Shown: positions 58,353 to 62,102 of the stretch, one piece after another
Layout of the letters: every line of letters begins with the position of its first letter
How positions within the stretch are numbered: position 1 is the stretch's first letter
Origin: Hyphomonadaceae bacterium
GTDB lineage: Bacteria; Pseudomonadota; Alphaproteobacteria; Caulobacterales; Aquidulcibacteraceae
Length of the DNA stretch: 64,000 nucleotides
Assembly (NCBI GenBank): GCA_019753105.1
Contig: JAIELJ010000003.1
Location: 62,001-126,000, forward strand
Reading direction: 5' to 3'
Program-made: the position numbers and the translations under genes
The notes under the pieces: model-generated
What the model was told of the DNA's origin: nothing
What the model saw: the letters and a program-made list of their open reading frames with translations, nothing else
The model's database searches: none

Positions 58353-58381
58353 GACCGCTGGCCTATGGCCAGCGGTCTTTT
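58353..58381 (+). terminator. Rho-independent terminator
   Basis: GACCGCTGGCC (58353-58363), TAT loop, GGCCAGCGGTC (58367-58377) then TTTT. It ends the TraB-like gene. Converging histidine-kinase transcripts meet it from the other side. Confidence 0.9.
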
Positions 58382-58641
58382 CATTTGCCCGGCAGCGTAA
58401 GCTTGGCTGAGAAACCGCGCGGCGTGCGGTTGGCGAATTCCAAGCGGCCGCCATGCGCTTCGGCGATCGCTTGCGCGATGGCGAGGCCGAGGCCTGCGCC
58501 GCCGGTTTCGCTGCTGCGCGCTTCGTCCGCGCGGAAGAAGGGCGCGGCAAGGCGCTCCAACTGATCGGGCGCCACGCCCGGCCCCTCATCAGTGACGTCA
58601 ACCACCGCTTCGCCGCTCGCGCCGCGATAGACGCGCATCAC
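58381..58641 (-). CDS. Histidine kinase, C-terminal ATPase fragment (frameshifted)
   Basis: 86 codons holding the second half of the HATPase_c domain: VDVTDEGPGVAPDQLERLAAPFFRADEA (G1 and F boxes) and GGAGLGLAIAQAIAEAHGGRLEF (G2). The preceding N box is in the other frame at the end of the neighbouring ORF. If one base is restored near 58657, the reading becomes ENA.YGGGGVMRV, the normal HK sequence. It therefore looks like the broken 3' half of the kinase gene, not a separate protein. Confidence 0.8.
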   Translation of the reverse strand: MMRVYRGASGEAVVDVTDEGPGVAPDQLERLAAPFFRADEARSSETGGAGLGLAIAQAIAEAHGGRLEFANRTPRGFSAKLTLPGK

Positions 58642-59774
58642 GCCGCCACCGCCATATTGGCATTCTCGGCGAGATTGCGCAGTGCGCGTGCGATTTCGCT
58701 AGGGCGGCATTCGGCGGTCACCGGTGTTGGCGCATCCGCTGTCGCGTCGATGCCCATGTCTTGGAGTTCGCCGCAGAGTGTGCGCGTGATTTCCGCCAGA
58801 TCGACTTGCGCGCGCGCTTCGTCGCTGGCGCCGGCGCGGGCGAGTGCGAGCGCTTGTTCGGTCAGGCGTTCCATTTCTTCGACCGATGCAAGCAGGCGTT
58901 GGCGCGTCGCTTCGTCATCGACCAGTTCGGCGCGCAGGCGGATGGCTGTGATCGGCGTGCGCAGATCGTGGCTGAGCGCCCAGAGCATTTGGCGTTGGCG
59001 ATTGAGCTGGCGGCCCAAGCGTTGCGCCATGGCGTTGAAGGCGGTCGATGCGCGGCGCACGTCGGCGGGACCGCTAACCGGTGCTTCGACTTGCGTTTGC
59101 CCCGAGCCCAAAGCCTGCGCGGCGCTTGTTAAATCCGCCAACGGGCGGCCGATCTGGCGCGAGACGAGCGCTGCGCCGATGCCGACGATGATCACAGTCA
59201 CAAGCGCGCCTGCGAGCGCGCTCAGAGGTGCGGGACGAGGGCCGGGGAGACGCGCGCGCGCGTTAAGCCAAGAGCCGCCGCCAAGATCGACGGCGATCTG
59301 GACTTCCGTCGACTGCACGATCGGCGCGTCATCGCGCGGCCCGCGTTCGCCCGGCTCACTGTCCGGCCCGTCGAATGCGCCACGCTCGCGCCGCCAGCGC
59401 CGGGATGGGCCTTCGACGGTGCGGGCGCGGGCGAAAACATCAATGTCGTCCAGTTGAGTAGCGATGGCGCGGGCGATGCGGCCGCCTGCGCCCGGTCCGC
59501 TTTCGCTGACGATTGGCTGGGTTTCCACGTGATAGCGGATCGAGAAATCGCGAATGCCTTCAGCGAGGAACGGGCGTTGGCCGGGAGGCGTCGCGCGCAG
59601 GCGTTCGGCGGTGTAGACGACGCGCTCGATGACGCCCGTCTCGGCGGCGCGCCGAAGTGCGGCGCCGCGCTCGTTGGCGTAGATGAAGAACGCCGCCGCG
59701 TATGAGATGAACACTGCGACAACGGTGACGAGCACCAGCCGTCCGGTCAGCGTATTGAGCGGGTTCAGGTTCAC
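58638..59774 (-). CDS. Sensor histidine kinase, truncated by a frameshift
   Basis: 378 aa with two membrane spans (residues 10-32 and 186-207), a periplasmic sensor loop of about 150 residues, a HAMP domain (205-255) and the phospho-acceptor SHDLRTPITAI (His269). The N box (RALRNLAENA) is reached at the end, but the frame then shifts (NMAVAA stop) where a normal kinase has YGGGG. The rest of the ATPase domain continues in frame +1. GTG start overlaps the response-regulator stop. Confidence 0.85.
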   Translation of the reverse strand: MNLNPLNTLTGRLVLVTVVAVFISYAAAFFIYANERGAALRRAAETGVIERVVYTAERLRATPPGQRPFLAEGIRDFSIRYHVETQPIVSESGPGAGGRIARAIATQLDDIDVFARARTVEGPSRRWRRERGAFDGPDSEPGERGPRDDAPIVQSTEVQIAVDLGGGSWLNARARLPGPRPAPLSALAGALVTVIIVGIGAALVSRQIGRPLADLTSAAQALGSGQTQVEAPVSGPADVRRASTAFNAMAQRLGRQLNRQRQMLWALSHDLRTPITAIRLRAELVDDEATRQRLLASVEEMERLTEQALALARAGASDEARAQVDLAEITRTLCGELQDMGIDATADAPTPVTAECRPSEIARALRNLAENANMAVAA

Positions 59775-60493
59775 CGTTTTTCGACCGGCGCAGTAAAGAC
59801 GTAACCGCCACCCCAGACCGTCTTGATCAGCTTCGGCGTGCGCGCATCGACTTCGATCTTGCGGCGCAGGCGGCTGACTTGCGTATCGACAGCGCGGTCG
59901 AAGACATCGGTGCCGCGCTCGAAGGCAAGATCGAGCAATTGCTCGCGCGTCAGCACGATCTTGGGGCGCTGTAGGAAGGTGAGCAGCAGGCGATACTCGC
60001 CTGTGCTGAGTTCGTGAGCGACGCCTTCATCGTCGACGAGTTCGCGCTCAGCAAGCTTCAGCGTCCAGCGATCGAAGCGAAGCGCGTCTCCTGTCGGCGC
60101 TTCAACATCCGGCGGCAGCGCATGCGTGCGGCGGAGTACGGCATCGATACGGGCCATGAGCTCGCGCGGATTGAAGGGCTTCACGACATAATCGTCGGCG
60201 CCGACTTCGAGGCCGATAATGCGGTCCAGTTCTTCGGCGCGGGCAGAGAGCAGGATGACAGGGATGTGGTTGGTTTCACGAATGTGCCTGCAGAGCGAGA
60301 GGCCGTCTTCGCCAGGCATCATGATGTCGAGTATGACAAGATCGACGCGGTTTTCCTTGATCGCCTTGCGAGCCGCCTCAGTGCTATCGACCGCTGTCGC
60401 GCGTCGGCCGTTCTTTTTGAGGAACTGGGCCAGGGACTCACGGATCTCGCGATGATCGTCAACGACGAGAATATGGGGGTCTTCCACGGTCAT
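59771..60493 (-). CDS. OmpR-family response regulator
   Basis: A 240 aa protein. Receiver: ILVVDDHREIRESLAQFL (acidic pair), LVILDIMMPGEDGLSLCRHIRE (phosphorylated Asp), LLSARAEELDRIIGLEVGADDYVVKPFNPREL (Lys). Winged-helix DNA-binding domain: VDDEGVAHELSTGEYRLLLTFLQRPKIVLTREQLLD...DRAVDTQVSRLRRKIE. It acts with the adjacent histidine kinase, overlapping its start by 4 bp. Confidence 0.95.
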   Translation of the reverse strand: MTVEDPHILVVDDHREIRESLAQFLKKNGRRATAVDSTEAARKAIKENRVDLVILDIMMPGEDGLSLCRHIRETNHIPVILLSARAEELDRIIGLEVGADDYVVKPFNPRELMARIDAVLRRTHALPPDVEAPTGDALRFDRWTLKLAERELVDDEGVAHELSTGEYRLLLTFLQRPKIVLTREQLLDLAFERGTDVFDRAVDTQVSRLRRKIEVDARTPKLIKTVWGGGYVFTAPVEKR

Positions 60494-60669
60494 TGGTCTT
60501 GATGTGCGGCGTCGTTGGGCAAAAATCTACAGAGCGCGCGTGCCGGGTTTGTGCCAAAGCTTGGCAGGACGGGGGCGGCGACACATTTTGACGAGAACGT
60601 GGCCCTGTGCCGCCACAAGACTGCCCAGGTCGGCCCGCTTGGTGGCCTGGCATTTTCAGGGGACGATTC

Positions 60670-61158
60670 ATGCGGTTGAAGACTTTGGCGTTGGCGGGTT
60701 GCGCGGCTCTGGCTGTGACCGCGTGCGCTTCCGGCGGCGGACGCGAAGGGTCAACCCGCGATCCGATCCGGGCGCTGCTCTCGGGCGACGCGCTCATGTT
60801 CGTGAGCTTCGACGCCAACGGCGATCTGAGCGTCAGCCGCGACGAGCTTGAAGCGGGCATCACGCGTGAACTCGCGCGCATCGATACGAGCGGCGATGGC
60901 ACGATCTCGCCGATTGAGTTCCAGACGTGGGCGAACGCCGTGCTCGGCGGCGGCCAAATGGGGCCGTACCGGCTCGATTTCGACCGCAATGTCGACAACA
61001 CGATTACGCGCGAAGAGTTCGAAACCGAAATTCGCGCACGCTTTTCCGATTACGATGAGAACAACGATGGCGCAGTGACGCGCAGCGAAATGGTCCGCCT
61101 CGTGGGCGCGGCGCGCCCGCCGACGCAGCGCCGCGAGCCTCTTCCGCCGATGCGCTGA
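60670..61158 (+). CDS. EF-hand calcium-binding lipoprotein
   Basis: A 162 aa protein with lipobox AVTAC and four EF-hand-like loops: DANGDLSVSRDEL, DTSGDGTISPIEF, DRNVDNTITREEF and DENNDGAVTRSEM. Each has the D-x-[DNS]-x-D/N-G spacing of calcium loops. Likely a periplasmic calcium sensor or buffer. It is divergent from the two-component operon and upstream of an RNA candidate and a second EF-hand gene. Confidence 0.9.
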   Translation: MRLKTLALAGCAALAVTACASGGGREGSTRDPIRALLSGDALMFVSFDANGDLSVSRDELEAGITRELARIDTSGDGTISPIEFQTWANAVLGGGQMGPYRLDFDRNVDNTITREEFETEIRARFSDYDENNDGAVTRSEMVRLVGAARPPTQRREPLPPMR

Positions 61159-61208
61159 AAAAGGGCGCTGACAAGAATCGGCGCCAAAACGTCGCGCAGC
61201 GAGAAACC

Positions 61209-61236
61209 TTGGACACATCTCGCGCGTACCTATGTG
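61209..61236 (+). promoter_or_regulatory. Promoter of the 61.24-61.36 kb RNA candidate
   Basis: TTGGAC at 61209-61214 and TATGTG at 61231-61236, 16-bp spacer. The predicted start (about 61243) falls just before the first hairpin (61245). Good fit to a housekeeping sigma promoter except for one or two bases. Confidence 0.6.
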
Positions 61237-61242
61237 TACTTG

Positions 61243-61366
61243 GAAGCGAGCCAACCCTCCCCCCGAGGCTCGCTGATCCGGCGGCGCCCTATCCCTCCCC
61301 CCAAAGGGCGCCGCACAAACAAGGCGGCCAGCGCACCCCTCCCTCGCGCTGGCCGCTCTTTTTTTG
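61243..61366 (+). ncRNA. Candidate triple-hairpin small RNA with anti-Shine-Dalgarno loops
   Basis: Three consecutive hairpins: AGCGAGCC/GGCTCGCT (61245-61274), GCGGCGCCCT/AGGGCGCCGC (61281-61314) and GCGGCCAGCGC/GCGCTGGCCGC (61324-61356). Loops of 14, 14 and 11 nt all hold a pyrimidine run containing CCCTCCC, complementary to Shine-Dalgarno sequences. Eight T follow the third (terminator). This is the plan of alphaproteobacterial multi-loop anti-SD regulators of the ar15/cuckoo type. No protein frame is credible here. Family membership is inferred. Confidence 0.72.
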
Positions 61367-61484
61367 TCCGGCGTTCCGACAAACTTTGTCGCAACCGCGA
61401 CCAACGGGCGAAACAGCCGCGTTCTATTCCGAGATCATGAGGGAATACGGCCGCGCATCCCCGGCGGCTATGAGGAGTAGGTTC

Positions 61485-62102
61485 ATGCGCAAATTTTTGT
61501 TCGCCGCTGCTGGCTTCGCGGCGCTCGCTGGCGCGGCCGGTTTGGCGCTGGCTCAGGACGCCAGTGCGCCGCGCGAACGCGGAGCGGCGTTCTTTCAAGC
61601 TGACGCCAATAGTGACGGCGCGGTCACGCGCGCGGAATTCGATGCGTCCCGCACCGCGCGCTTTGCGCAGCTCGACGCCAACAACGATGGCCAACTGACC
61701 CGCGAAGAACGACGCGCCGAGCGTGGCGATCGCGGCCGTCATGGCCGACGCGGCGGTGGTCCGCACATGCTCGGCCGCGCCGACGCCAACAATGACGGCA
61801 ATATTACTCGCGAAGAGTTCTTGGCGCGTCCGACTGAAATGTTCGCGCGTCTCGATGCAAATAGCGACGGCGTGATCTCTGCCGCCGAGCGGCCGGAACG
61901 CCCCGAGCGTGGCGAGCGCCCGAACCGGGGCGAACGCCGCGAACGCGCCAACCCCGACACGAATGGCGATAGCCAGCTCTCGCAGGCTGAATTCGTCGCT
62001 TCCGGTGCGGGCATGTTCCAGCGTCTCGATGCGAACAGTGACGGCCGTGTGACGCGGGAAGAAGCCGCCGCCGCGCATCCGCACCGCCGCGGGCGCGACT
62101 AA
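61485..62102 (+). CDS. EF-hand protein, exported
   Basis: A 205 aa protein with a signal peptide (FAALAGAAGLALAQ) and six EF-hand-like calcium loops (DANSDGAVTRAEF, DANNDGQLTREER, DANNDGNITREEF, DANSDGVISAAER, DTNGDSQLSQAEF, DANSDGRVTREEA). An Arg-rich spacer separates loops 2 and 3. The ATG at 61485 is chosen because the residues before it do not form a signal peptide. Together with the upstream EF-hand lipoprotein it suggests periplasmic calcium handling. Confidence 0.9.
   Translation: MRKFLFAAAGFAALAGAAGLALAQDASAPRERGAAFFQADANSDGAVTRAEFDASRTARFAQLDANNDGQLTREERRAERGDRGRHGRRGGGPHMLGRADANNDGNITREEFLARPTEMFARLDANSDGVISAAERPERPERGERPNRGERRERANPDTNGDSQLSQAEFVASGAGMFQRLDANSDGRVTREEAAAAHPHRRGRD

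What the first reader, a model, noticed from the sequence alone, without database searches (positions are those of the whole stretch)
61209..61366. Candidate anti-Shine-Dalgarno small RNA made of three hairpins
Seen: a promoter-like TTGGAC...TATGTG, then three perfect stems of 8, 10 and 11 bp with loops carrying a CCCTCCC-type run, and a T8 terminator. Known: alphaproteobacterial ar15/cuckoo-type RNAs use CCUCC loops to block ribosome-binding sites, and the pattern is repeated in tandem hairpins. Inference: this is a translation regulator in a lineage where it may not be described. It lies between two EF-hand genes.
Basis: partly seen in the sequence, partly recalled or inferred. Interest (0 to 1): 0.8.

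Follow-up and report, generated by a model that had tools for sequence, protein, structure and literature searches.

The report
Three-hairpin RNA that mimics ribosome tail
Between two calcium-binding-protein genes lies a conserved gene for a small RNA whose three loops look made to cover ribosome-binding sites of other messages; it is a divergent cousin of a known bacterial RNA family and sits inside what may be the control circuit of a neighbouring sensor system.

Summary
Window 61236-61365 (+) has three perfect stems (8, 10, 11 bp), CCCTCCC in every loop and a terminator T-run (T7, not T8). It folds far better than shuffles (z -6.3) and passes Rfam's cut-off for alphaproteobacterial ar14 (63.9 bits; cut-off 58.8). 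The right relatives are ar14/NfeR1 and the 'cuckoo' class, not ar15.

In the genus, 21 of 27 genomes with the neighbouring response regulator carry the RNA at the same place, between two EF-hand genes; one has a remnant and five lack it there. Those six form one clade, so loss fits. Stems covary strongly while loops stay C-rich. None of the 20 other copies reaches any Rfam cut-off, and the defining CCUCCUCCC occurs in 1 of 20 carriers: a divergent variant that standard annotation misses.

New here: palindromic boxes (GACAMACTTTGTCGC-like) recur before EF1, the RNA and EF2, suggesting control by the adjacent OmpR-type two-component system. Best reading: a trans-acting anti-Shine-Dalgarno repressor under that system. 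Expression, operator binding and targets are inferred. Of two candidate targets followed, one (VWA/YfbK) keeps GGGAGGG in 17 of 19 carriers, the other (nuoI) in 1 of 19.

The parts
61236..61365 (+). sRNA gene (transcript start inferred at about 61236-61241; end at the T-run)
   Evidence: RF02344 ar14 63.9 bits over 61236-61361; genus model R2 126.7 bits (the window is one of its 17 sequences); fold z -6.3
61242..61279 (+). hairpin 1 (8 bp + outer 3 bp), loop AACCCTCCCCCCGA 61253-61266
   Evidence: covariation helix 1, 11 of 11 pairs with changes on both sides
61281..61314 (+). hairpin 2 (10 bp), loop ATCCCTCCCCCCAA 61291-61304
   Evidence: helices 2 and 3, 10 of 10 pairs with changes on both sides
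61324..61356 (+). hairpin 3 / terminator stem (11 bp), loop ACCCCTCCCTC 61335-61345
   Evidence: helix 4, 100% of cells paired in 17 orthologs, 2 of 11 pairs with changes on both sides
61359..61365 (+). terminator T-run (T7)
   Evidence: terminator survey of the window by script; the tool scan with loops of at most 8 did not list it
61209..61214 (+). -35-like TTGGAC
   Evidence: a GACACA-like block is roughly conserved in the alignment of 20 carriers; not found by the strict scan
61227..61236 (+). -10-like region (TACCTA 61227-61232 or TATGTG 61231-61236)
   Evidence: TA at 61227-61228 kept in 18 of 20 carriers
61168..61185 (+). operator-like box upstream of the sRNA, degenerate in this genome (CTGACAAGAATCGGCGCC)
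   Evidence: the same place in relatives matches the EF2-box matrix; 19 of 20 EF1-sRNA gaps at p<=0.05. In the window's own gap the best-scoring site was another one (61181-61198) with a score of only 1.4 (9 of 300 shuffles)
61378..61392 (+). palindromic box upstream of EF2 (GACAAACTTTGTCGC)
   Evidence: pattern found in 22 of 26 genus loci; the only copy without mismatch in the genome
60550..60567 (-). operator-like box 1 between the response regulator and EF1 (TGTGCCAAAGCTTGGCAG on +)
60578..60595 (+). operator-like box 2 between the response regulator and EF1 (GCGACACATTTTGACGAG)
60670..61158 (+). EF-hand protein 1 (162 aa)
   Evidence: Pfam EF-hand models over cut-off
61485..62102 (+). EF-hand protein 2 (205 aa)
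   Evidence: Pfam EF-hand models over cut-off; NCBIfam XopAW and lanmodulin models only below their cut-offs
59771..60493 (-). OmpR-type response regulator, proposed to bind the boxes
   Evidence: Pfam Response_reg and Trans_reg_C; best NCBIfam model OmpR, below its cut-off; 27 of 30 genus genomes
58638..59774 (-). partner histidine kinase (HAMP, HisKA)
   Evidence: Pfam; EnvZ-like by NCBIfam, below cut-off

Best explanation
It is a free-standing sRNA gene of about 125-130 nt. SHOWN by sequence: three hairpins with C-rich, anti-Shine-Dalgarno-like loops, a terminator, synteny and compensatory change across a genus, and recurring operator-like boxes. INFERRED: the neighbouring EnvZ/OmpR-type kinase-regulator pair binds the boxes before EF1, the sRNA and EF2 and drives them together; the RNA then pairs through any of its loops with GGGAGG-type ribosome-binding sites of other mRNAs, many perhaps of envelope proteins, and blocks their translation, as NfeR1 does in Sinorhizobium. 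It would be the repressing arm of a regulator whose other outputs are EF-hand proteins.
For: ar14 hit over the Rfam cut-off. 21 of 27 regulator-bearing genus genomes have it in the same gap. 18 of 20 carriers fold with three pyrimidine loops, 2 with two, against 0-1 of 200 shuffles each. On 17 of the 20, 92.5% of cells pair, 23 of 32 pairs change on both sides, covariation 0.483 against 0.159 shuffled (0 of 500) and at most 0.106 when slid. Boxes at p<=0.05 in 25 of 26 RR-EF1 gaps and 19 of 20 EF1-sRNA gaps, against 1 of 26 and 6 of 26 coding controls. The box without mismatch occurs once in the genome, at this locus. GGGAGGG close before ATG: 40 sites against 9 for the reversed pattern; two of five scanned products are TonB-receptor plugs. 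A VWA/YfbK gene keeps GGGAGGG in 17 of 19 sRNA carriers and 0 of 3 genomes without the RNA. Known precedent: NfeR1 silences ntrB at its ribosome-binding site (PMC10746234, passages).
Against: No expression data. The box before the sRNA is degenerate in the window's own genome (best score 1.4), and 6 of 26 RR coding controls also pass, so the box test is not fully specific; with two mismatches the box is no commoner in the genome than its reversed control (11 against 17). Beyond the box the sRNA and EF2 promoters show no similarity (0.29 against 0.29 shuffled). GGGAGGG before ATG may simply be a strong Shine-Dalgarno. nuoI keeps it in 1 of 19 sRNA carriers and 1 of 5 genomes without, and pairs better on average in those without (-19.1 against -11.5 kcal/mol). 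The VWA site is nearly kept in genomes without the RNA (GGGGAGG, GGAGGG). Fold energy is unremarkable in two carriers (z -1.6 and -2.1). No terminator was seen between EF1 and the RNA, so EF1 read-through could also supply it.
Confidence: 0.6

Rival explanations
1. It is a 3'-UTR-derived RNA of EF1: transcribed with EF1, ended by hairpin 3 and perhaps cut free by RNase, with the same pairing function.
For: No terminator was seen between the EF1 stop (61158) and the RNA. Precedent: CcsR1-4 are processed by RNase E from the ccaF1 transcript (figure legend of PMC10253847).
Against: An operator-like box (19 of 20 gaps) and a conserved TA at -10 distance lie between EF1 and the RNA, which suggests a promoter of its own.
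Confidence: 0.2
2. It acts only in cis, as a strong terminator and insulator between EF1 and EF2, or as a leader of EF2; the C-rich loops are incidental.
For: C-rich loops also occur in other terminators of the order (loci L220, L221, L227) and in one terminator elsewhere in the own genome, so C-rich terminator loops may be a lineage habit. Some relatives do without the RNA in the EF1-EF2 gap.
Against: Two extra hairpins with C-rich loops, each kept by compensatory change in a non-terminator position, are not needed to terminate. EF2 has its own box after the terminator, so the RNA is probably not an EF2 leader.
Confidence: 0.14
3. The region is coding: the 297-aa frame 61209-62102 (TTG) is an N-terminal extension of EF2.
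For: The frame is open through the RNA.
Against: The distance from box to hairpin 3 varies by amounts that are not multiples of 3 (136, 137, 139, 140, 144, 147, 148, 150 ... nt); change follows base pairing; a T-run and a box interrupt.
Confidence: 0.03

Closest known systems
alpha-r14 / NfeR1 (Smr14C2, RF02344), Sinorhizobium and relatives
   Same: Length (123-nt model), three hairpins, aSD-type motif in every loop, divergent stems; the window passes the Rfam cut-off; description of NfeR1 from passages
   Different: Loops are CCCUCCC(CCC) and the like, not CCUCCUCCC (1 of 20 carriers has it at all; 0 of 20 inside a folded loop); the gene lies in a two-component/EF-hand locus, while NfeR1 is under LsrB and NtrC (passage); the other 20 copies reach no Rfam cut-off
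Cuckoo RNA class / CcsR1-4 (RF02791), Rhodobacter
   Same: Tandem hairpins with CCUCC-type loops
   Different: CcsR1 scores 27.7 against a cut-off of 65.3; CcsR lie in an operon with ccaF1 under an RpoH promoter (legend); here the upstream gene is an EF-hand gene
alpha-r8 / SisA-D (Caulobacter)
   Same: C-rich seed pairing with 5' UTRs (UUUCCUCCCU; passages)
   Different: SisA-D carry one single-stranded seed beside a weak hairpin, not three loop seeds; four copies with unrelated promoters
6C RNA (RF01066)
   Same: Two hairpins with C-run loops
   Different: 36.0 bits, below its cut-off of 47; a lookalike (its home in actinobacteria is recalled)

Membership tests
ar14 (RF02344) | Score at or above Rfam gathering cut-off (58.8) | tested here: met
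   63.9 bits, whole model 1-123. But none of the 20 other copies of the same gene in the genus is over any Rfam cut-off (true copies seen score 27-55 bits)
ar14 (RF02344) | Three hairpins, third one a terminator | tested here: met
ar14 / cuckoo | Identical ultraconserved CCUCCUCCC in each loop (as described in PMC10746234, passage) | tested here: not met
   Absent from the window RNA; in 1 of 20 carriers anywhere in the RNA, CCCUCCC in 19 of 20; inside a folded loop 0 of 20 and 16 of 20
ar14 / cuckoo | Hypervariable stems with conserved loops | tested here: met
   mean stem identity 0.35, 0.40 and 0.53 for hairpins 1 to 3, over the 18 of 20 carriers with exactly three hairpins in that script; both-side changes
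ar14 (RF02344) | Common descent with rhizobial NfeR1 | tested here: inconclusive
   No intermediate series found; the class search (11 of 289 genomes, only the window's over the cut-off) scored at most 11 candidates a genome and cannot show absence
ar14 (RF02344) | Hfq-independent, silences mRNAs by pairing at the ribosome-binding site | not testable with these tools
   needs experiments
CcsR1 (RF02791) | Rfam cut-off 65.3 | tested here: not met
   27.7 bits
ar7 (RF02342) | Rfam cut-off 60 | tested here: not met
   36.5 bits
ar15 / AbcR | Any match to an ar15 model | tested here: not met
   no ar15 listed at E up to 1 in a scan of all 4227 families; that Rfam holds an ar15 model is recalled

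The most novel reading that the evidence does not exclude
A cuckoo-like anti-Shine-Dalgarno RNA has been recruited as the translation-blocking arm of an EnvZ/OmpR-type two-component system whose other local outputs are two EF-hand proteins, so that one signal both raises EF-hand proteins and broadly lowers translation of mRNAs with GGGAGGG sites; its loops have drifted from CCUCCUCCC to CCCUCCC to suit that set, and one clade has lost it.
Probability: 0.33. Interest if true: 0.58.

Novelty: new variant of a known kind. Interest (0 to 1): 0.42.

Why it matters
It extends the three-hairpin anti-Shine-Dalgarno RNAs to a genus where 20 of the 21 copies found lie below every Rfam cut-off, so that standard annotation misses them. 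It also ties such an RNA to a local regulator with testable operators, and offers a natural experiment: relatives with the RNA, with a remnant, and without it.

Tried and rejected
Second copies in the own genome: a 22.8-bit ar14 hit (L002) is a two-hairpin stretch whose T-run lies on the other strand; a 13.2-bit hit (L003) has no such loops; a 37.3-bit R2 hit on C1 is one terminator with a C-rich loop. None is a second gene. R2 matches at about 44 bits or less were treated as noise, because the antisense strand of a true copy already scores 42.3; this is a judgement, since one of them (L217, 44.3 bits, in G014) does have a long CCCTCCCCCC loop.

Promoter duplication: the idea that the sRNA promoter is a copy of the EF2 promoter was tested beyond the box and failed.

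Box regulon elsewhere: with two mismatches the pattern is no commoner than its reversed control (11 against 17), so no wider regulon can be claimed.

The sRNA beside this kind of regulator outside the genus: 34 loci with related regulators, 29 of them with an EF-hand match in the fetched stretch, gave 4 weak matches (13-23 bits) to the single-sequence model R1; the two whose alignments I saw lack the C-rich loop set. R1 is insensitive, so this is no proof of absence.

Is the CCCUCCC loop unique? No: of ten class or order loci printed, six carry CCUCCUCCC two or three times, one (L146) has three loops with CCCTCC-type runs and no CCUCCUCCC, two (L148, L149) were probably read on the wrong strand by my script, and one (L150) came out empty.

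Targets: only two of 40 candidate sites were followed across the genus (VWA/YfbK and nuoI, chosen by hand); one is conserved, one not. The VWA site in genomes without the RNA, where a start could be placed, is GGGGAGG (G006) or GGAGGG (G021; also G012, which has no regulator match); in G045 no start could be placed: too few to decide.

16S tail: the own genome's 16S match stops at model position 873 with a short piece to 902, so the anti-Shine-Dalgarno of this organism was not read; CCUCC there is recalled knowledge. An early matrix took 4 of its 15 boxes from the RR-EF1 gap and was replaced. Rows dropped: L037 (same sequence as L136 at this place) and L134 (remnant) before the carrier counts (as I quote them); L143 (fragment) and L037; L118 and L119 (four hairpins by the loose rule) before the identities; L126, L133, L136 fell outside the E threshold of A6 (17 of 20 aligned). 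G024 (L232) was found later and is in the 21 and, not in the 20 of the other counts.

Full report
WHAT WAS CHECKED. The stretch 61209-61366 was read and folded. It holds three perfect stems of 8, 10 and 11 bp, a CCCTCCC in each loop, and a T7 run. Minimum free energy is -71 kcal/mol, z -6.3, with 0 of 200 dinucleotide shuffles as stable. The strand is set by the T-run after hairpin 3 on the + strand.

WHAT IT IS. Rfam ar14 (RF02344) matches 61236-61361 over its whole length at 63.9 bits, above its cut-off of 58.8. ar7 (36.5), 6C (36.0), CcsR1 (27.7) and Scr3202 (24.3) match below their cut-offs; no ar15 is listed at E up to 1. In the own genome it is the only ar14 match over the cut-off.

CONSERVATION. 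With the same Rfam model, 22 of 41 genomes (own included) have a match at E<=0.01, but only the window's own is over the cut-off, and some of the weak ones look spurious (L021, L022, L025). The adjacent response regulator was used as an anchor: 27 of 30 genus genomes have it at E<=1e-90. Of those 27, 20 show the RNA between EF1 and EF2 (or EF1 and the adaptor gene where EF2 is missing, L136) in the anchored loci; G024, whose anchored locus is cut off, has it too, giving 21 of 27. G009 keeps a remnant (L134) and G042, G010, G045, G006 and G021 lack it there. A tree of regulator plus kinase puts the five and the remnant in one clade among RNA carriers (support 0.90; the nodes nearest the root of the genus are weak, 0.03-0.68), which reads as one loss rather than a gain. 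A genus model (R2) finds exactly these 21 at 48.9 bits or more, and nothing else above 44.3 bits in 60 family genomes. In 150 genomes of the order, three outside the genus score 45.1, 47.9 and 49.7; each shows two hairpins with C-rich loops, and the two best follow what looks like the end of a reading frame, so they are not this gene but may be related in kind. None of the 20 other copies reaches any Rfam cut-off.

STRUCTURE IS SELECTED. Each of 20 carriers was folded alone: 18 have three pyrimidine loops and 2 have two; 0 or 1 of 200 shuffles reach that number; energy z values run from -1.6 to -7.1. On 17 of them aligned to a single-sequence model, 92.5% of cells pair (69.7% shuffled; 29-50% when slid by 1-3 columns), 23 of 32 pairs have changes on both sides, and the covariation score is 0.483 (0.159 shuffled, 0 of 500). 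This alignment was fitted to the structure and leans to it; the separate folds do not. The loops stay C-rich while mean stem identity is 0.35-0.53. CCUCCUCCC, described as ultraconserved in alpha-r14 (PMC10746234, passage), is in 1 of 20; CCCUCCC is in 19 of 20, in a folded loop in 16 of 20. By contrast six of ten loci printed from elsewhere in the class (L144, L145, L151-L154) carry CCUCCUCCC two or three times each; L146 has CCCTCCC-type loops instead.

THE LOCUS. Order: kinase and regulator (minus strand), EF1, RNA, EF2, RND-type adaptor, ABC ATPase (the last by eye, cut by the window end). A palindromic box, GACAMACTTTGTCGC-like, lies before EF2. A matrix from 22 EF2 boxes finds a site at p<=0.05 in 25 of 26 RR-EF1 gaps and 19 of 20 EF1-RNA gaps, against 1 of 26 EF1 coding and 6 of 26 RR coding controls. 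The one miss in the EF1-RNA gap (L140) has a box just inside the stretch matched to the end of EF1, which the script left out. The window's own upstream box is degenerate. The EF2 box is the only one without mismatch in the genome, and with two mismatches the pattern is no commoner than its control. Related regulators elsewhere often lie beside an EF-hand gene too (28 of 80 loci show an EF-hand or adaptor match), but R1 found no convincing RNA in 34 loci. That the regulator binds these boxes is inference from position and palindromy.

HOW IT LIKELY WORKS. By analogy with NfeR1, which silences ntrB at its ribosome-binding site through redundant loops (PMC10746234, passages; PMC7143759, passages), the CCCUCCC loops should pair with GGGAGG-type sites. 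GGGAGGG-N2-8-ATG occurs 40 times in the genome against 9 for the reversed pattern. Of 30 sites fetched, 20 open frames are at least 60 aa; several look secreted or like lipoproteins by eye, and of 5 scanned, two are TonB-receptor plugs, one a VWA/YfbK protein, one a PhoD phosphatase and one unmatched. Two targets were followed. The VWA site keeps GGGAGGG in 17 of 19 RNA carriers, in the remnant genome, and in 0 of 3 without the RNA; nuoI keeps it in 1 of 19 carriers and 1 of 5 without, and pairs better in those without. Genomes without the RNA have GGGGAGG or GGAGGG at the VWA site where the start could be placed. This is a lead, not proof.

COMPARISON. It works like, and by the Rfam score of the window's copy is filed as, ar14; but the loop motif that defines the class in print is not met and common descent with rhizobial copies was not shown. 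So: a divergent variant of the ar14/cuckoo kind. The paper on the cuckoo class (Reinkensmeier and Giegerich 2015) is not held; what I say of it is recalled or taken from passages of others. PMC12559287 was seen as abstract and passages, PMC3927594 and PMC10253847 as passages, PMC13171946 as abstract and outline. Searches for a description in this group; their listings showed none.

Noticed in passing
window 58381-58641 and 58638-59774 (-): The histidine kinase is split over two frames that overlap by four bases; the second frame looks like the ATP-binding end (by eye). Frameshift, assembly error or two genes was not decided.
   Followed up: no
L220, L221, L227 (another family of the order): What looks like the end of a reading frame is followed by two C-rich loops (CTCTCCCCCC-type), the second in a terminator: perhaps a 3'-UTR RNA with the same loop chemistry.
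   Followed up: partly
L016 (= L223), L017, L225 (genus g3 of the order): Three-hairpin RNAs with two long C-rich loops (CCCTCCCCTCCCCCC-type) and a plain terminator loop (GCAA/GAAA): another cuckoo-like RNA below the Rfam cut-off (L017's second stem folds poorly).
   Followed up: partly
L217 (G014, contig C69): A 44.3-bit R2 match with a CCCCTCCCCCC loop, away from the EF-hand locus: a possible second RNA of this kind in one genus member.
   Followed up: partly
L002 1501-1610 (own genome, contig C10): A terminator whose loop reads GGGAGG, complementary to the sRNA loops, followed by a second hairpin with GGGAGGGGG: a conceivable sponge.
   Followed up: no
window 61437-61445 and EF2 leaders of relatives: A GAGGGA, GAGGGG or AGGGAG string lies in the EF2 leader in 10 of 20 RNA carriers; it could pair with CUCCCU-type loops.
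   Followed up: partly
L233-L254, VWA/YfbK leader: The GGGAGGG ribosome site lies between GGACG and CGTCC in several genomes and could be shown in a hairpin loop, which would allow loop-loop contact; the folds vary and do not all agree.
   Followed up: partly
L038-L083: OmpR-type regulators related to this one lie near EF-hand genes in Sphingomonas, Roseibium, Methylobacterium and others.
   Followed up: partly
L044 4864-4967 (Sphingomonas koreensis): Between the EF-hand match and the regulator lies a terminator whose loop reads ACTCCTCCA: a single C-rich loop at the like place.
   Followed up: no
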